Source: Phorcus lineatus (lineage: Eukaryota; Mollusca; Gastropoda; Trochida; Trochidae). Taken from it: DNA of 64,000 bases. A program made the position numbers and the translations under genes. The stretch covers positions 21,121,748 to 21,185,747 of the forward strand of contig OV121082.1 of the NCBI GenBank assembly GCA_921293015.1. The letters run 5' to 3'. Of this stretch, positions 6,300 to 57,469 are shown piece by piece. Under the pieces are notes generated by a model. The model made no database searches. It was not told the origin of the DNA and saw only the letters and a list, made by a program, of their open reading frames with translations. How positions within the stretch are numbered: the stretch's first letter is position 1; every line of letters starts with the position of its first letter.

Positions 6300-7150
6300 A
6301 GATGTCTCTGTGTACACACACCAAGGGGATAAATACCCAGAGGCTGGACACACAGGCTTTCAGTTATAGAGTGGTCACTCAGGCTCTGGCCACTTACTGG
6401 ACATTGGTCAATTCATCTTGGACCACTTTCTGGCATCAGGTATATCATCTGGAGCCACTCAAAGGCATTGGTTACTTTAGCCTTAGTTATTTACAAGGCA
6501 TTGGTCACTTACCAGTACTCTTTACTTGAAATTGATACTTCCTCTTTGGTCAGTTGTTGCTATAGTTGCTTCTGGTCAAGCTATTAACTGTCATTGGTCA
6601 TCTTGGATCAAACCTCTTATTTGCTCTTTGGACAGTCAACTTAATTCTTATTCTTCTTTGGTCAGTTGTTGCTATGGTAACTTGTGGTCAAGCTATTTAC
6701 TGTTAATGGTAACTTTGGATCAAACCTCTTACTAGCCCTTTTGAGAGTCAGTGTAATTCTTAATGTAATATTTTGTGATGTTCTGGTTCAGATGCTAACA
6801 CTTTTATCAAGAACTTGCAAATTATCTATGAGAAATGTTGTATGTATTGAAATTAGTTAAATTTCAATAGAACATGTTCTTCTTCATATCAGCTTTTGAA
6901 ATGCCTCTCAGAGAAGTCACTTACTGGTCATTGGTCAGTTTGTCTTTATAATCAGCCACTTACTGACATCAAATGTTTCATCTGAGTTATTGGTCACTTT
7001 GGTCGTAGTTAATGACCGGTTGTCCAAGACATTCATAGGTATACATATCTGAGCAGTTCCTCTTGTCAAGTTCACCTCTTTGACCATTAATTCACAAGCT
7101 GGTGGTCACTTCTTCTACATAACTGAAATCTGTGGTCACTCAGTGACCTA
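6300..7150 (+). repeat. degenerate TTGGTCA-rich repeat field with a 113-bp duplication
   Basis: The motif ttggtca/tggtcact recurs many times. Within it, the segment beginning ctttggtcagttgttgctat at 6543 is repeated at 6656, and both copies continue through ggtcaagctatt and ttggatcaaacctctta. It looks like an old, eroded tandem array. The short open frames inside are repeat products. Confidence 0.6.
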
Positions 7151-7849
7151 GACTAAAATTCAATATCTAAACAATAAATCAGAAAACAATTATTTCATTC
7201 AATAAAAAAGGGAGCCTCATAAAGAGCGGTGTTCATAAGTTGATTTCAAATCTAGACCTGCTTGTCAAGATGTTTTGTTGAGTTCAAAATAGTAATAATT
7301 TCAGTCTGGGTGTTTCTGTTAGACTATTAGTGACCATGCAATCCTTCGAAAGAATATTGACCAATCAGAAAATATAAGAAAATATCTGGAACTTAATGTC
7401 CCCCTGAAAGCACGTTTATATTGTAGCTTGGATATTTTCTATTAATTGGCAACTTAGACAGGCTTGGCACTGATCAGTTCAGCATTTAAAGTTTTAATAA
7501 ATATATATTTCACATGTATGTGTAGATCCCATTGATTTGATAATACCCTTTTTTTATGAATCCATAACAAAAGATAGCTCTTCATAGACTAAATACGAGT
7601 CTTGGAGTTTAAATAAGCATTGCCACTTGATGGTACCTGAACAAACCAATGAGGCAACTTTTATCTATTTATACTGACCAACGTCTAGCCCTAACGAGCC
7701 AGTCTTACTGCCATCTGTAATTAGTGCTAATACCACAGTCGTGTGCGTGTCCAACCGGTCACTGGTAATCTGTTATTCTGGAGAACGGATACTGTAACCT
7801 GGTCTGCCTTCTGAGGGAACAGGCTTAACAGATTGTCAAATCTATTCAC
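7151..7849. other. no feature seen
   Basis: No recognisable exon or repeat. The more GC-balanced patch at 7.68-7.82 kb shows no motif I can name. Confidence 0.4.
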
Positions 7850-8195
7850 TTAAAGGGGCAGTGGTACATTTTTTGCTGAAATTAGTAGCTGAAATGAATT
7901 TCATAATTAATGTCATCAACAATTAAAAACATTTTGTCTTAGGAAAATCAACTTCAAGAATGAGTGTCCATGGTTCAGTTTAGCAACAGGAATCATTTTT
8001 TTAAATCTAAATTATAAAAGGTGTTCACATTAAGATGGCTGCAACTCATTTTTGGCTTTATAATGTGACCAGGTTTCAAAAACTATGGATAACAGGGTCA
8101 TGTAATGAGATGTTTAAAGTAATCCTAACATTCCTTTCCTTTTATTATAAATGGCATATTTTAAAAAGTATACAAATTGTCCAAAACATGCTAAA
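7850..8195 (+). mobile_element. TTAA-flanked MITE (family M1), copy 3, 3' end eroded
   Basis: Begins with the canonical ttaaaggggcagtgg terminus. It contains the family block aaaggtgttcacattaagat followed by ggctgc, in the same orientation as copies 1 and 2. The expected right terminus (actgccactttaa type) is not intact, so the end is set where similarity to copy 2 fades. Confidence 0.65.
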
Positions 8196-8984
8196 GGCAC
8201 AGTTCTTTTTGTGTATTTCTTTGGAAACAAAATTTGGAGGGGCCTTCCCATTTTCAGATCTGAACCTGTAATTGATATATGATTATTTTAAAATCCATTT
8301 GAAACATTTATTTTTGGGGGGTTCTCATCATTCCTGATAATTCTTTTTTTCAAATAGGAAATATATTTAAGTTAAGTTGATGTTAGTGAACTAATTTTGA
8401 ATCTTCTCATAGAAGAGCACTAAAAGTCTTGCTAAAAGGTTTATGTTTACCATTGTGCTTCAGTATTACAGTCACAAGACTTCCTGGACAGGACACAGGA
8501 GACTGGTACAAATATATGGCAGCACCAATATTGGATATCAGTAACTCAGTTATAGGCATCATATAATGCTCATCTTCAAAGGCAGTTATTAATATTACCC
8601 ATTGGAAGAGTTGAACTGCCCATAGAGACTTACACTTTCTGAAGTGATACCTGCAGTGTTTAAGATATCTTCGTCCAGCAGATGGCCAGTTCTACCCTCC
8701 CCCCCTCTATGTCCCCCTCCCAGGCCCCTTTGATCACTTCATACCTGTATCAAGTCTACACCTTATGTTCTCTGCATCACCACACCTGGATAGAGTAACA
8801 AATTAAAAACTTCAAATATTAAATTTCTCAGAGACCTTTATGTTTTTTGCACCACCACATCGGAATCTACAATTGTTACATTGCTCAGAGATTCAAGAGA
8901 TATTTAAAATAATCAGGTCAGTGGTTATTATATTAAACCATACGACAAGTTACATATCGAATAGCAAGATCAACTTCTCTTTTG
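8196..8984. other. no feature seen
   Basis: A C-rich stretch at 8.69-8.73 kb (cccccctctatgtccccctc) is the only compositional anomaly. No gene is supported. Confidence 0.4.
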
Positions 8985-9040
8985 TGAAAAATTCTAACGT
9001 TAAGAGTATGTGATTAATCCTTCATCAGGTTGAATTTGAG
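8985..9040 (-). ncRNA. hammerhead-ribozyme-like relic
   Basis: Read on the minus strand, the order is AAATTC, AAC, CTGATGA, AGGA, a 12-nt loop, TCTT, AACGTTA, GAATTT. AAATTC and GAATTT can pair as stem I (6 bp). AGGA and TCTT can pair as stem II (with one G-U pair) next to the invariant CTGATGA box. The usual GAAA box after stem II is shortened to AA, so the catalytic core is probably inactive. Just downstream the strand reads TTTTTCACAAAAGAAGTTGA, resembling the tail after the motif at 53.1 kb. Hammerheads of this compact kind are known in Penelope-like elements and retrozymes; membership here is inferred. Confidence 0.45.
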
Positions 9041-9045
9041 ATATA

Positions 9046-12000
9046 ACTTAATTGGATACATATAAATCGTCATTGGATATCACCATATATATCATCACTT
9101 TGTTATTACCCTAACAAAACTAAATGCATATAAATGAATAAGCATATACTCTGAAATGACATGACTTTTCCAATTAAGAAGATGTTTCCAGAAATCTTGC
9201 TGTTCCTACATACACCACTTATGAATGCCCTTCGAAGATTTTATACCAGATGATTAACGGTCATCATGATTTTGGTCTAATGTATAGGTACCTCTAGGTC
9301 TGTGGAATCTAATTGGCTCCAGAAGCTACAGCCTGGAATGTCCTGGAATGTTCCTGGTCCAGTCAGCGTGCTGTGATGATGTGGATATCTAATGCATTCT
9401 CATAGTCCAGTAGACTTTCCTAGCAGGAGGTCCAGGATTCCTCTAAAATAAGAATTTCTCAAAAATCCTTACACCAATTTTGTTAATTTATGTTTCTTCT
9501 CTTTTTTCTTTTTACCTCCTGTCCAACGGTCAATCCTCAATTCCATGTGTGGCCACAACTGTTACCTCAGATGACTTTTTGTAGAATTGCATGTGACTTT
9601 TGCAAAATGACGTGATGAGGCAAGAATCATGAAAGTAGATAGCGGCATGATTTCTTAAATTCAGTTTCTAAAGCTAGTAAGTAGCTATGTTTTTTAAATA
9701 AAAGCCAAATCTAGAAGACAGGTTAATGTATATGATGAGATTTCCTCCTGGCCTGTATAAAAAGTTGCCTTGTCAGTGCAAGATGTGACTATGACTTGAA
9801 GAGTTAAATGTGGGCCCAAAATTATCAATTTTATTAGGAGAGGAAAAAAACAAGTTTAGTCAAATATCAGGCACTTAAATCCAAGATAGCTGATGTTTAT
9901 CTGGTATTGTACTATAAGAACCTGAATACAAGAGTTTATCAAGATGTCTTGTCAAGAAGATGAATTTACGACTTCTCACGTTTTGTATGTTTTTAGTGAT
10001 TATCAAGCTAACAAAGATCTCCATACAAAAATGTGTTATAGAACTAAGACCAAATCTCTCTATCACGCTCATTCTCATATCTCATATCTCCAATCCAGAT
10101 CCAGATCCAAAATAAGGACTTGAAATATTATGAAAAAATTAAACATTTTCACTCCAACAAATATTTCCCCAATATTGTTTTACGAATGTGTTACAAGGAA
10201 ACTTTTCTTCAGGTCTTGGATGATTACAAACATTGAGAACTCATTATGGTCCAGTTTGATCAACCTAAAGATAACTCACTATCATGAAGGGTTAAGGCCA
10301 GTCAGAATGGCTGAGGACAAATAATTTCAAAGCACTCTTGTTGTAATATTTGCTCTCCAATATCATAACACTAAGAGAGCTTTTGAAATCTTGCCTCTGA
10401 AATTACTGATCCATGACCATGTACTGCTTTGGGCTCAGAATTATAAATCTCCATAAATCTACAAGGGAAATTAACCGATAAATAGTACTTTTGTGCAAGA
10501 AGACCCAGAGGAACTTTCTTCCGAAGAACAGAATTCAGAATAAGATTTCATCAACCTCAACATTTAAAAGAATTAGTCTTGTTAAAATTCTGGATCTGTC
10601 ATGGCCACTTCTGCCAGTCCCACAACCATTATTCTCAGAAACTACAAGGAGGAATATAATTCTGTTGATGACTTGTTTACGATGCTGTGACCGTCATTCA
10701 CAGTCCAACCCTACCAAGAAACACATGTAATTTTGACACAGAGCCATTGGTAGACAGTATTAACAATATATAGAGTTCCTTGGCAGCCCTCTTGGTTTTT
10801 GATGGTACTTGGACCAAACTTTCATGTTCTTCGAAATAGGAGGAAAATTCCTGATGTTTCTAATGTTCTCGTGAGCATAGTGAGGACAGTTTGGTTAGGA
10901 CTTATTTATGGTTATGTTAGTAGACTATCGGACCTGTCATTGTTTGTGATGAATCAGTTTTCTCATGCAGCGAGGAGCCGCAGTTTGGACCATGTTTATT
11001 GTAATGGGAGCAGACAATTGGAGACTTACAAGTTCTTCAAGAACAAAAGAGGCCATCAAAGAGACATATATTTGAATACCGGGGATGTAAAATTGTAGAG
11101 ACCTTTCTTGATGTCGGAGTTACTGTTCTCTTTAGAATGGAGCAAAGAAAATGATGATTTAAGACAAATATAATGCCTGTCAATTGACCCATGTTTGAGG
11201 TTAAAAATGAACAAGAGGACACCATGAAATATTTATGAAATTGATGATAAAAGCAATACACTAGTTTTTCAATAGTAAAAGCACTAAAGTGACCATAATG
11301 TTTGTTTTGGACTATTCAAAAAGGTCAATTAAGTATGAAATATGTCGATCCTGTAAGCATATTCATTATCATTCACAAGATATTGGTTAATGTATTCTTG
11401 TTCTTAATCTGCAAAGTTTCAATGTATATCTTATAATTTGATGTTGTAGTTACCTTTGATTATATTTTCATAATTTGAAATAAAAAGCATTTCTATAGTT
11501 TTAAGTTAAAATTGTTCAATATCTTTAGTCTAACTTTAGTCTGTTCATTTGATTCAATTGCTTAAACATTCAATAAAAAAATTACAAATAGAAAATGAAA
11601 GTTCATCAACCTTGGCAATTGAAAAAAATTAATACTTTAAAGATCTAAATATATTTGTTTAATACATTGATTTCCTATTTGTATAAAGGAAAGTGTCTTG
11701 TTCATTAAACAATAGTCTCTATTTAAAGTGCTTTTTATCTGATTTACAAAGAAAAGTGAAAGAAGAACTAGTTGCAGTTTTTGCAAATTTTCTTTTTCCT
11801 CATTTCCAATGTCAAAAAATCATACTATTAAAAAATATTAAATAATGAATAACAAAATTAAAAATCAATATTTAAAATAATTGGATGGACAGTTATTTAG
11901 ATATTCAACTTTTCTTTTCTAACAACAATCATTTCAGTGAATGTATAAAGAACCTATATTTAGTTTTTTATCTGATTGGAATAGAGAACCCAACATGGTT

Positions 12001-28452: not shown

Positions 28453-28790
28453 GTTGGGCACAGTGGTGTAGTGGTTAGCTTGATTGCCTCTCAAGCCAGA
28501 GACCCGGGTTCGAATCCCAGTGCAGACACCAAAAATTTGTGACTTGGGTCTAATCCTGTGTTGTGTGCCTTGGCAAGACACTTCATCCACTTTGCACTCA
28601 GTTCACCCAGCTGTACAAAAGGGTACCTGAACAAGGGGGAAGTACAGACCTATATGGTCGCGTGGAACGCTTGTTAATTGGCGACACCGAACATACTATC
28701 CCTCCAGGGTAATAATACTCATGGCGCTTTGAGCATGCTTTGTCATGGATATATGGGCGGTATAAGAAAGCTATTATTATTATTATATAT
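28453..28790 (+). mobile_element. tRNA-derived SINE (family B) with ATT tail, full length
   Basis: The tRNA-like head has an A box (TGGTGTAGTGG) and B box (gggttcgaatccca). A body with acttcatccac, gctgtacaaa and gggtacctgaa follows, then a conserved 3' block (gcgctttgagcatg) and a (att)n tail. The same body and 3' block occur inverted at 59.7 kb. The layout (tRNA head, conserved central domain, ATT tail) resembles V-SINEs such as the molluscan RUDI; the family name is inference. It appears inserted into a hammerhead-like sequence. The minus-strand frame at 28336-28590 is repeat-derived. Confidence 0.88.
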
Positions 28791-32279: not shown

Positions 32280-32844
32280 TCTGTTTATTACTTGATCTCG
32301 GTTATCAAGCATGATTGCAGAAAGTGTACTGAACAAAACATTTCCATGACTTGGCCGCCATTGTAACAGCACTGCCAACGTTGTGACGTCACAACCACAC
32401 CATATTATGAGGTCATATGTGCAGAGGTATTACAATAGTTTAATATCGCCGTAAAAATATTACACCGCAGTATCTAACTCGGGCAAGTGAAAATGGTATT
32501 AATTGTTGCGATAATATTACACAGCCCTTAAAAATTGGGTTAAGTATTAGTTATGATTGCACTATTTGCGCAAGATTATTAATAAACATACTTTTCAAAC
32601 AATTAGCTTTGTAGAAATTGGAGGGAAGAAGAATAAATGCTATTTTCATGAAATACACATCTTCTTTATGATGTATAACCAACATCGTATATTGTTACCA
32701 AGCAAGCTTTTAAAGTTGACTATCTCATAGCCTTTGCTTTTACCTTTTTAACAATAAAGTAAGCTTAAGTGACCAATTTCAGGTTATCAAATGAAGTTTC
32801 AGAGAAAGTTTTGAAAAAAGTGCATATTTTCTAAGTTTTACATA

Positions 32845-33259
32845 TGTGGCAGGGTGAAGTAAAAGCATTCCTACTGGCTTTGGCCAGAGGGATATCACTT
32901 TGGCTGAATCGATAGAGTGTAGGACTCTCACCCGGAGGTCCCGGGTTCGATTCCCGCTGGAGGTGATCTCACAATCACTTCTGTTACATTTGGCGCCCAA
33001 CGTGGGGCCGGGGCAACTCCCTAGTGCTCACTACACCCTGAGTACATCGAACTGAGGTGCTTGAAAACTCCAAATTGCTCGACTCGAGGACGAGTCACTT
33101 TGTGGAGGGGGTGTTTGTGGCAGGGTGAAGTAAAAGCATTCCTACTGGCTTTGGCCAGAGGGATATCTCTTTGGCTGAATCGGTAGAGTGTAGGACTCTC
33201 ACCCGGAGGTCCTGGGTTCGACTCCCGCTGGAGGTGATCTCACAATCACTTCTGTTACA
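32845..33259 (+). mobile_element. miniature LTR retrotransposon (TRIM) with tRNA-like pol III promoter in each LTR
   Basis: Two 144-bp direct repeats (32845-32988, 33116-33259) start TG and end CA and differ at four positions. After two bases, the left LTR is followed by tggcgcccaacgtggggc (32991-33008), the primer-binding site for tRNA-Lys of the kind used by many LTR elements. The 127-bp interior has no coding capacity. Before the right LTR come ctcgaggacgagtcac and a purine-rich tract (tgtggagggggtg), like the 3' end of Ty3/gypsy elements. The flanks carry cata on both sides as a 4-bp target duplication. Each LTR contains a tRNA-like segment: tggctgaatc (A box region), an anticodon-loop-like ctctcac and a B box ggttcgattcc or ggttcgactcc. 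Being non-coding, it must borrow gag/pol from a gypsy-like partner. Confidence 0.85.
32941..32965 (+). promoter_or_regulatory. pol III B box within left LTR
   Basis: ggttcgattcc (32944-32954) matches the B-box consensus GGTTCGANTCC exactly. It is paired with the A-box-like tggctgaatcga at 32901. The right LTR has the equivalent ggttcgactcc at 33215-33225. Confidence 0.7.
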
Positions 33260-33640
33260 CATATTAGAATTAATCATTATATAAAATTGATTTTAATGAA
33301 TCAAAAGCAACTGCAGAGAAATGAACATTTCTAAATTATGACTTTCTTTTCAAAAAGCAGTCGCGTGATCTTTTCATTTGCAAACAAAGTTGAAATGGGT
33401 TATGATTATGATAGGATGAATTTAAATATCATTGACAACAGTCTGTTGATTAAACAAGTCATCACATGGTTCAGTAAGTTGAAGATCCTCTCAAATTCTT
33501 ACTTTCTGTCATTAATCTATGTATCTTACATATGTAGTGTAAGCTGTAGAGCTGTGTGTGTATATAACTGAGATAGGGTTCTTCATGTACTTAGTGCTTA
33601 CAATCCCTGCTATATAGAAACCTTTGTCAATACTGTTTAG
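33260..33640. other. no feature seen
   Basis: One 77-codon frame without motif; otherwise plain AT-rich DNA. Confidence 0.4.
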
Positions 33641-40049: not shown

Positions 40050-40539
40050 TGATTTGGGATTTAACCCCGCTGTCAAGAGTATTTCACTTATATCATGGCT
40101 CTTAGTATCATTGAAGGAAGAAAGCCTGAAACACTATTATGGCTAAGCGTTGCTGTGAAACCTGTGAGCATCGGCTGTAACTATAGCCAACCATGGGTGG
40201 TACAGGGCTGAAATTCAGTGAAGGATTCCACCTAAACCTTTCTGCGTGTAGAACAGTTCTCTACTGCAGACAAAGTTGCCGAGCCCCTGGTGGGATCTGA
40301 AACCAGGACCCCTTGATCAAAAGTCAAACGTGCTAACCACAGTACTACCCCACCTCTAGACCAAGATTTGGTCTATGAAAAATTTTAATAATTTAATGTT
40401 CCTCCATCCATGATATTTTTTTCTTTGGGCTCCTTATTTCATGTGTATTCAGTCAATCTAGACTTGTTAAATGTGGACCTAGACTGTATTTAAGGCTCCT
40501 TTATATACACAGTCATGAAGCAAACTACCCCACCTCTAG
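40050..40539 (-). mobile_element. tRNA-derived SINE (family A), copy 4, interrupted near its 5' end
   Basis: Minus-strand copy. Tail (tttaaccccgctgtcaagag) at 40056-40075, body, and tRNA-like head up to about 40359. The head is diverged (ttagcacgtttgacttttga region) and the B box is altered. Its 5' end is split by the family S insertion 40360-40523: the words actaccccacctctag at 40344-40359 and 40524-40539 are the duplicated insertion site within the SINE's own 5' end. Confidence 0.8.
40360..40523 (-). mobile_element. small dispersed repeat (family S), copy 2, with 16-bp TSD
   Basis: A 164-bp insertion bounded by the perfect 16-bp direct repeat actaccccacctctag. On the minus strand it is collinear with 34.84-35.01 kb, including the aggagcccaaagaaaaaaa word and the terminal near-palindrome (catagaccaaatcttggtct). 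A 16-bp duplication suits LINE-mediated retroposition better than cut-and-paste transposition, yet no poly(A), A box or B box is obvious. Possibly a retroposed small RNA or a 5'-truncated LINE end. Confidence 0.75.
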
Positions 40540-55987: not shown

Positions 55988-57073
55988 CATCCATACATCA
56001 TTGAATGAAATAAGTGCTTACTCATTTAAAGCCTGCATTTACTCTATAAGGATTAGTTTAAACTTGTCATTGTTCATTTTAGAAAAGAAAAATCACTTGG
56101 TAATGTTTGTTTGGTCTCTTATGGTAACGGTTTGAACCCTGACCTTGTTGTCCAATATCGTGATAGGGATGGGAGTTTTGTTACCCTGCCTGGTATTTAG
56201 AATTATGAGGATAGGATAGGGCTCTATCAGATGCTGCAATGTGGCTGCTAGTTTCAAAATACACAAATCCAATATTTCCATTTTTATAGAAAAAAAGAAC
56301 CTTTGTCATTATGCTGATCACTAGATTATCGTATATTTCTTTCCCAGTTTATTTCATACACTGCAAATTAAATTGATAATTATCTCTTTATACATACATG
56401 CGTTGTTTGCAGTTATGAATATAAGAACAAATTGACAAAATTTGAAAAGTTATTTATAATCTCAAATTTTGAATTTCACATTTTATTTGAATTATGAATG
56501 TTAATTTCTTTATTCTTACATATTGTCCTTGGAAATATAAATATACAAACAAATGAAAATAATTTAAAATTCAATCAGTTCTTTTTTTTTCATATCTTAT
56601 TTGTAGTATGAATTGCACATAAATGTTTTTAAAATCAACAAGCAACTCACCATATTGAAAATGAGGCAAGGCGTCAATTATGAGATACACTATAAATTCT
56701 ATGTTACGCATGAATTACACATATGCATTATCAAAGAACACTGGTTAGTCAGCGTGAAATCTGCGTAGCTTTAAACTTGCTATCTTTGTGACTAAAACGC
56801 TTAATAAGCTACTGAGGGTGTTTTAGTGCATAAGATTGTTACTAAAGGTGCATTGAGTCAAAATGCTCCCACAACTTTAATTACCTGTTAGTCATTGTAA
56901 TACCTGATGTTGATCAATATGATGTAGTTAGTATAGAAAATCTGTAGGATGGGTTAAAATATCATATTCATATTTGTTGCTGTTTAGTCATAATGGCTAA
57001 TATTAATATGATTGCCTTTTATGTGAAAGTGAATTATGTAACTCATTAATCAACATTATGATTAAGGGGACAT
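55988..57073. other. no gene recognised
   Basis: AT-rich DNA. A 62-codon minus-strand frame at 56.1-56.3 kb has no motif. Confidence 0.4.
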
Positions 57074-57187
57074 TTTGGGCAGGTTTTCTGGTATCGTTTA
57101 GTTGGACATCCCTTGGGCTCAGTTAATTGCTAGAGTGTCAAAGGTTTGAATCCCAATGAAGGTGATATCACTATAACTTTTGTTATA
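57074..57187 (+). mobile_element. decayed solo LTR-like unit related to the 32.8-kb TRIM
   Basis: The order gggcagg, cttgggctcagtta, gctagagtgt, ggtttgaatccc (B-box-like), gaaggtgatatcactataac, ttttgttata parallels the 144-bp LTR at 33.1 kb (gtggcaggg, tttggctgaatc, ggtagagtgt, ggttcgactcc, ggaggtgatctcacaatcac, ttctgttaca). The anticodon-arm part is deleted. Neither primer-binding site nor second LTR is visible. Confidence 0.45.
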
Positions 57188-57469
57188 TGTTGCCTTGTTG
57201 TTGTAAGGTGCAATTTAGTAATTGGTAATTTAGTAAAGGTTGTCCCATTTTTAGATTGCTTTAGTAGTAAAGTTGCATTAGATCTTTTAATACTGTTTGA
57301 AAACTTTTGCTTTGACAAATTGATGTGCTGTTTGTACTGTTGTTGCTGTAACTTGTGTGTGGGTTTGAATTCTGCCAGAGACTTTACCAAAATGTGGTAC
57401 AAGAATCTACTTTTGCACATGATTCCAGATATAACAGTGTTTCCAAATAGATATGACATGTATTTCTGA

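What the first reader, a model, noticed from the sequence alone, without database searches (positions are those of the whole stretch)
32845..33259. Miniature LTR element whose LTRs contain a tRNA-like pol III promoter
Seen: two 144-bp TG...CA repeats with four differences, a tRNA-Lys primer-binding site, a purine tract, a CATA target duplication and only 127 bp inside. Each LTR contains an A-box-like and a consensus B-box sequence in tRNA order. Known: Cassandra TRIMs of plants carry 5S rRNA genes in their LTRs. Inference: this is an animal counterpart using a tRNA module, so its RNA could be made by RNA polymerase III and packaged by a gypsy-like partner. All four inter-LTR differences fall inside the tRNA-like half.
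Basis: partly seen in the sequence, partly recalled or inferred. Interest (0 to 1): 0.85.

Follow-up and report, generated by a model that had tools for sequence, protein, structure and literature searches.

The report
Snail mini-retrotransposon with tRNA-like ends
A sea-snail genome carries a tiny non-coding jumping element whose repeated ends contain a tRNA-like sequence; the kind was described in 2024, but here hybrid copies fused to a larger retrotransposon point to the helper that moves it.

Summary
The window lies in the topshell Phorcus lineatus and holds a complete 415-bp TRIM: 144-bp TG..CA LTRs, CATA target duplication, exact 18-nt tRNA-Lys primer-binding site, purine tract, and A/B boxes in each LTR. 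It belongs to a family (123 LTR/PBS/internal junctions and 760 LTR ends genome-wide, up to 3 mismatches). The kind is not new: Kojima 2024 named TRIMs with tRNA-like LTRs 'Helenus' and reported them from fungi, a plant and six animal phyla, bivalves included; his table lists no gastropod. What I add is a partner. A gypsy element with open gag and pol frames and 881-bp LTRs shares 20 nt at the PBS, the purine-tract/LTR border and the 4-bp TSD, and nothing longer in the parts compared. Nine loci join this gypsy's LTR end to TRIM internal sequence at the PBS; three other junction types searched gave none. Six of the nine were resolved at both ends and all six, plus a seventh hybrid that copied the primer tRNA itself, are bounded by perfect 4-bp TSDs: each is one integration of a hybrid cDNA, as plus-strand transfer between co-packaged templates should leave. 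Pol III transcription remains inferred.

The parts
32841..32844 (.). 5' target-site duplication CATA
   Evidence: 35 of 40 single-unit copies have a perfect 4-bp TSD
32845..32988 (+). 5' LTR, 144 bp, TGTGGCAGGG...GTTACA
   Evidence: first 10 nt are those of the gypsy partner's LTR (TGTGRCAGGG)
32894..32965 (+). tRNA-like module of the 5' LTR; box A 32901-32912 (TGGCTGAATCGA, last base departs from the family's G), box B 32944-32954
   Evidence: two family LTRs reach the Rfam tRNA gathering score; exact box A in 68 of 74 LTRs, GGTTCGANNCC in 66 of 74; 47 identities in 76 columns with host tRNA-Lys-CTT
32989..33115 (+). 127-bp internal region, non-coding
   Evidence: apart from the PBS only chance-level similarity to the stretches of the gypsy partner it was compared with
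32991..33008 (+). primer-binding site, exact complement of the 3' 18 nt of tRNA-Lys-CTT plus CCA, 2 nt after the LTR
33104..33113 (+). polypurine tract GGAGGGGGTG
   Evidence: partner has AAAAGGGGGGTGAA at the same border
33116..33259 (+). 3' LTR, 144 bp
33165..33236 (+). tRNA-like module of the 3' LTR; box A 33172-33183 (TGGCTGAATCGG), box B 33215-33225
   Evidence: 50 identities in 77 columns with tRNA-Lys-CTT
33260..33263 (.). 3' target-site duplication CATA

Best explanation
A Helenus-type TRIM (a putative pol III-type 'TRIMp3') of Phorcus lineatus, moved in trans by the reverse transcriptase and integrase of a resident Ty3/gypsy family, called X here. Shown: structure, family, shared PBS, shared purine-tract/LTR border, 4-bp TSDs, and TSD-bounded X/TRIM hybrids. 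Inferred: RNA starts a few bases before box A of the 5' LTR, driven by the internal A/B boxes, reads through the element (the window copy has no TTTT on this strand), is packaged in X particles, is primed by tRNA-Lys, and is copied as any LTR element is. The hybrids are explained by X plus-strand strong-stop DNA annealing, through the common PBS, to TRIM minus-strand DNA in the same particle.
For: Family and TSDs. X is gypsy: gag with a marginal PNMA match (25.8 bits, cut-off 25), then RVT_1, RNase H, H2C2, rve; LTRs of one X copy identical over 881 nt, TSD TATG. Shared cis signals: 20 nt from the start of the PBS, PPT/LTR border. Hybrids: of 12 sites with an X-like LTR end, the PBS and TRIM internal sequence, nine have X LTR upstream (six; two at 90% and one at 76%). 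Three of them carry a whole X LTR on the left and a TRIM LTR on the right with TSDs TACA, ATTA, TAAA; two begin with an inverted X LTR end, TSDs CACG, TAGT; one has GTTA. L053, outside those 12, holds X LTR, PBS, antisense tRNA-Lys, antisense TRIM LTR and TRIM between CAAG copies. Other junctions: TRIM-LTR/X-internal 0, X-PPT/TRIM-LTR 0, TRIM-PPT/X-LTR one 3-mismatch hit that proved to be a TRIM LTR (80%).
Against: No RNA evidence. Absence of TTTT is not significant (shuffles give none in 49% of trials; 6 of 48 units have one), and an older related copy has T-runs in its LTRs. Neither window LTR module folds as a cloverleaf, ARAGORN finds no tRNA in the window, and the window copy reaches no Rfam tRNA gathering score (at E up to 1 only a 15-nt T-arm fragment of the tRNA clan, one overlapping clan match not shown). 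Three of the nine hybrids could not be tested for TSDs, and the two C5 loci, 30 kb apart with the same mismatches, may be one event duplicated. One of the 12 sites (C13:31945627) joins TRIM internal sequence to an LTR unlike X, so X may not be the only partner. No packaging signal shared with X was found beyond PBS and PPT border. Another LTR family (Y) carries the same PBS 18-mer.
Confidence: 0.8

Rival explanations
1. The TRIM is an ordinary pol II TRIM; the tRNA-like stretch is a passive relic of a SINE in the LTR, and RNA is made by pol II from the LTR or from flanking genes.
For: No transcript data; cloverleaf fold not predicted; AATAAA in both LTRs of 14 of 48 units.
Against: Box A is exact in 68 of 74 LTRs and box B matches in 66 of 74; no TATAAA, TATATA or ATTAAA in any of 48 units, whereas the LTR of one X copy has all of these. 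The AATAAA always sits at LTR position 14, before any likely start site.
Confidence: 0.2
2. The X/TRIM hybrids arose by recombination between integrated copies, so they say nothing about co-packaging.
For: X and TRIM share 20-23 nt at the PBS, and exchange between integrated LTR elements is common in general (PMC1950507, passages).
Against: Seven of seven resolved hybrids have matching 4-bp TSDs; exchange between two loci joins unlike flanks and would not. About 0.006 per locus by chance at 33% GC. Of four junction types searched, only one occurs.
Confidence: 0.04
3. Two independent SINE insertions that look like LTRs.
For: The repeat holds a tRNA-like head with A and B boxes; SINE-like tRNA stretches occur elsewhere in the window.
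Against: 43 loci with the same LTR-internal-LTR order, PBS and PPT at the borders, mostly with 4-bp TSDs.
Confidence: 0.01
4. The main mover is another family with the same primer (for example Y, or the owner of the unlike LTR at C13:31945627), and X is a fellow passenger.
For: Five of 30 PBS loci belong to Y; one of 12 hybrid-type sites has an LTR unlike X.
Against: X shares the LTR start and PPT border, has open gag and pol, and forms nine of the hybrids. At one Y locus the 6 kb beginning 1.5 kb after the PBS had no frame over 102 aa. Y was not searched for hybrids.
Confidence: 0.12

Closest known systems
Helenus (Kojima 2024, PMC10886601)
   Same: TRIM with tRNA-like sequence in the LTR, A/B boxes, PBS and PPT, 4-bp TSD in animals, tRNA-Lys primer in some bivalve families, gypsy partner suspected, tandem arrays (reported for the zebrafish family), more LTRs than internal parts.
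   Different: Host is a gastropod, not in that paper's table. Partner tied by TSD-bounded hybrids rather than by PBS similarity alone.
Cassandra (plants; PMC7215508 passages and PMC10886601)
   Same: TRIM with a pol III gene sequence in the LTR; tandem arrays sharing LTRs.
   Different: 5S rRNA rather than tRNA; conserved pol III terminators reported there, no TTTT in this copy; its autonomous partners are called unknown in PMC7215508.
biv-TRIM (PMC6934838, bivalves; part 1 of 5 read)
   Same: Mollusc TRIM, tandem copies.
   Different: 202-218-bp repeats, 77-80-bp internal domain, no unambiguous PBS; no tRNA-like LTR mentioned in the part I read.
Template-switch complexes of grass LTR elements (Sabot and Schulman 2007, PMC1950507, passages)
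   Same: Hybrid insertions recognised as single integration events by flanking TSDs.
   Different: There between closely related copies with three LTRs; here between a coding gypsy and a non-coding TRIM with unlike LTRs, joined at the PBS.

Membership tests
Helenus / TRIMp3 | short non-autonomous LTR element with two LTRs and no coding | tested here: met
   415 bp, 144-bp LTRs, 127-bp internal part
Helenus / TRIMp3 | tRNA-derived sequence with boxes A and B in the LTRs | tested here: met
   two family LTRs, among those in three loci scanned, at 29.3 and 29.0 bits against RF00005 (cut-off 29); boxes conserved; the window copy itself stays below the cut-off
Helenus / TRIMp3 | PBS and PPT at the borders of the internal part | tested here: met
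Helenus / TRIMp3 | 4-bp TSD in animals | tested here: met
   35 of 40 single-unit copies; three tandem arrays carry it at their outer ends
Helenus / TRIMp3 | transcription by RNA polymerase III | not testable with these tools
   no RNA data; Kojima 2024 also says experimental validation is lacking
Helenus / TRIMp3 | sequence relationship to a published Helenus consensus | not testable with these tools
Cassandra | 5S rRNA sequence in the LTR | tested here: not met
   no 5S rRNA among the four Rfam matches shown at E up to 1; tRNA-like instead
tRNA SINE | no LTRs; mobilised by a LINE with TSDs of variable length (recalled) | tested here: not met
   LTR pair, PBS, PPT, fixed 4-bp TSD; no 5-bp match in any of 40 single-unit copies

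The most novel reading that the evidence does not exclude
Helenus elements may be born, or re-supplied, by capture of their own reverse-transcription primer. Here the LTR module is clearly related to tRNA-Lys, the very tRNA that primes the element, and locus L053 shows an integrated cDNA in which gypsy plus-strand DNA copied the primer tRNA far past the PBS and then moved into the TRIM LTR at a 9-nt stretch (TCGGTAGAG) common to tRNA and TRIM. If such events can put a tRNA into an LTR, no SINE insertion is needed to create a pol III promoter there.
Probability: 0.12. Interest if true: 0.8.

Novelty: new member of a known kind. Interest (0 to 1): 0.55.

Why it matters
Which autonomous element moves the pol III-type TRIMs is open: Kalendar 2020 calls Cassandra's partners unknown (passage), and Kojima 2024 inferred gypsy partners in animals from PBS similarity and TSD length. 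Seven TSD-bounded gypsy/TRIM cDNAs in one genome give a natural record of co-packaging and name a testable pair. They also suggest a search principle: unlike LTRs at the two ends of one TSD-bounded insertion can reveal the partner of a TRIM. The host extends the reported range within molluscs from bivalves to a gastropod.

Tried and rejected
TTTT depletion as a sign of pol III: 42 of 48 units lack TTTT, but shuffles of the 271-nt LTR+internal unit lack it in 49% of trials and an older relative has T-runs in its LTRs; dropped. 'All LTR differences in the tRNA half' as a biological signal: partly CpG decay. Cloverleaf folding: not supported for LTR2 (z 0.68); LTR1 folds better than its shuffles (z -2.2) but not as a cloverleaf. 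A 7-bp acceptor-like pairing between LTR 49-56 and 114-121 holds the first and fourth rank of 806 offsets over 63 distinct LTRs, but alone proves little. Which host tRNA the module is closest to: the genome-wide tRNA search filled up with matches on one contig, nearly all of one score, so only tRNA-Lys was compared. Relatives in viral contigs: two exact patterns, no match. Sampling bias: the 43 loci with units are mostly the copies most like the window's (one search scored 40 of 1055 candidates), so conservation figures are upper bounds. A looser box A pattern matched 74 of 74 LTRs, the window's 5' LTR with its altered box A included, so it must also match elsewhere in the LTR; not used.

Full report
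What is there. The window copy is a complete 415-bp element: LTRs 32845-32988 and 33116-33259 (97% identical), CATA on both sides, PBS 32991-33008, purine tract 33104-33113, and an A and a B box in each LTR. The PBS is an exact complement of the last 18 nt (with CCA) of the host's own tRNA-Lys-CTT gene. Box A of the 5' LTR ends in A where the family, and the 3' LTR, have G.

Host. The genome has 957,807,699 bases, contig C1 of 79.43 Mb and a 19,115-bp mitochondrial contig whose frames lie in an order that I recall as usual for vetigastropods. These figures match the assembly of the thick topshell Phorcus lineatus: span 957.8 Mb, longest scaffold 79.4 Mb, 19.1-kb mitochondrial genome (abstract and passages of PMC10444997). 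The paper gives 78 scaffolds, the held copy 74 contigs.

Family. The DNA search listed 47 matches, with 40 of 1055 candidates scored, so a lower bound. Pattern counts with up to 3 mismatches give 123 LTR-end/PBS/internal junctions and 760 LTR 3' ends, so many LTRs are solo or fragmentary. From 48 loci (50 listed less 2 duplicates) I took 48 LTR-internal-LTR units at 43 loci; five loci gave none under the thresholds used. 35 of 40 single-unit loci have perfect 4-bp TSDs; the three tandem arrays (2, 4 and 2 units) carry one TSD at their outer ends. Of 37 equal-length LTR pairs, 13 are identical, which points to fairly recent insertions. Box A is exact in 68 of 74 LTRs and GGTTCGANNCC present in 66 of 74. 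Two LTRs, among those in the three loci scanned (L053, L034, L040), reach the Rfam tRNA gathering score over the full model (29.3 and 29.0 bits); the window copy does not.

Known kind. Kojima 2024 (PMC10886601; all six parts of the main text read; [quoted passage not shown] He reports 51 families in pteriomorph bivalves, some primed by tRNA-Lys, and infers gypsy partners from the PBS region. His Table 1 lists no gastropod. My searches for other papers naming Helenus or TRIMp3 returned only that paper, and one search on gastropod TRIMs (10 of 46 papers listed, titles and abstract starts only) showed none; Repbase and subscription journals were not searched.

The partner. The PBS 18-mer occurs 111 times in the genome, the reversed control 0 times. 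In the 30 loci cut out, besides the TRIM, two other LTR families carry it, called X and Y here. X is a Ty3/gypsy element: in one copy a 494-aa gag frame with a marginal PNMA match and a pol frame of at least 1310 aa (open to the edge of the stretch) with reverse transcriptase, RNase H, integrase zinc finger and integrase core in gypsy order. Its LTRs are 881 nt and identical, flanked by TATG. X and the TRIM share 20 nt from the start of the PBS, the LTR start TGTGRCAGGG (both letters occur in both) and the purine-tract border (GGGGGGTGAA against GGGGGTGTA). Otherwise the TRIM LTR and internal part show only chance-level similarity to the X stretches compared; the last 3 kb of X was compared at the border only.

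Hybrids. Twelve sites carry an X-like LTR end, then the PBS, then TRIM internal sequence (pattern with up to 3 mismatches). Two (L012, L017) are TRIM copies ending GTCACA|AAT. One (C13:31945627) has an LTR unlike X. Nine have X LTR upstream: five loci cut out in full (L046 = L083, L079-L082), the C32 locus, two C5 loci 30 kb apart (90% to the X LTR end) and C1:33117150 (76%). L079, L080 and L082 have a complete X LTR on the left and a TRIM LTR on the right, with TSDs TACA, ATTA and TAAA. L046 and L081 begin with an inverted X LTR end, with TSDs CACG and TAGT. The C32 locus has GTTA. For the other three X hybrids the ends were not found in the short stretches taken. A copy with unlike LTRs should not be reproduced as such by reverse transcription (general knowledge), so each locus with its own TSD is taken as an event of its own; the three whole ones also differ from one another (X LTRs 93-99%, internal parts about 95%), though L080 and L082 have identical TRIM LTRs.

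Locus L053 is a different hybrid. It reads: X LTR (with an internal deletion), PBS, the antisense tRNA-Lys continued as far as the D arm, antisense TRIM LTR nearly to its start (to about LTR position 13), the 3' part of a TRIM internal region, then LTR-internal-LTR, all between CAAG copies. The tRNA gene and the TRIM share TCGGTAGAG at the switch point. So the gypsy plus strand seems to have copied its primer past the usual stop and moved to a TRIM template.

Mechanism. In the standard LTR cycle (general knowledge) plus-strand strong-stop DNA ends with the copied PBS and then anneals to the PBS complement at the end of the minus strand. If the minus strand belongs to a TRIM in the same particle, the product is X LTR, PBS, TRIM internal, TRIM LTR, with X's own 3-nt spacer: this is what is seen (AAT in four of five, AAC in L046). 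TSDs at all seven resolved hybrids argue against exchange after integration, the criterion also used in PMC1950507 (passages). The one-sidedness fits too: TRIM-LTR/X-internal 0, X-PPT/TRIM-LTR 0, TRIM-PPT/X-LTR one hit that proved to be a TRIM LTR, against 8 X/X junctions. Steps inferred and not shown: pol III initiation, read-through, packaging.

Limits. No RNA data, no second species, and Y was not searched for hybrids. The TTTT argument failed its control. The tRNA module resembles tRNA-Lys (50 identities in 77 columns for LTR2, score 18.5 against a shuffle maximum of 8.5), but other isotypes were not compared, so the primer-capture idea is untested.

Noticed in passing
window 57060-57190: Stretch resembling a decayed solo LTR of the same family: 79% over 43 nt at LTR 100-142, with a possible worn box A upstream.
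   Followed up: partly
window 40288-40354 (-) and 28459-28525 (+): tRNA-like stretches, the first at 32.4 bits against Rfam tRNA, the second by similarity to the LTR module; perhaps heads of SINEs.
   Followed up: no
L049, L055, L056, L061, L067: LTR family Y with the same tRNA-Lys PBS 18-mer; no frame over 102 aa in 6 kb beginning 1.5 kb behind the PBS of L055.
   Followed up: partly
G000:C13:31945627 (L100): TRIM internal sequence joined at the PBS to an LTR end unlike X, ending CGACA: a possible hybrid with a further LTR family.
   Followed up: partly
L034 54-480: An older, diverged relative with its own LTR pair, a PBS-like TTGGCGCCCA and T-runs inside the LTRs.
   Followed up: partly
G000:C32 44644752-44666383: Dense array of tRNA matches with one and the same bit score.
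   Followed up: no
L044 about 6300-9200 (mitochondrial contig): About 2.9 kb of simple repeat that reads Met-Tyr in several frames, beside COX3; it probably adds to the 19.1-kb mitochondrial genome.
   Followed up: no
L046, L081: Hybrids whose left end is an inverted X LTR end, as if the cDNA end had folded back; a TSD is still present.
   Followed up: partly
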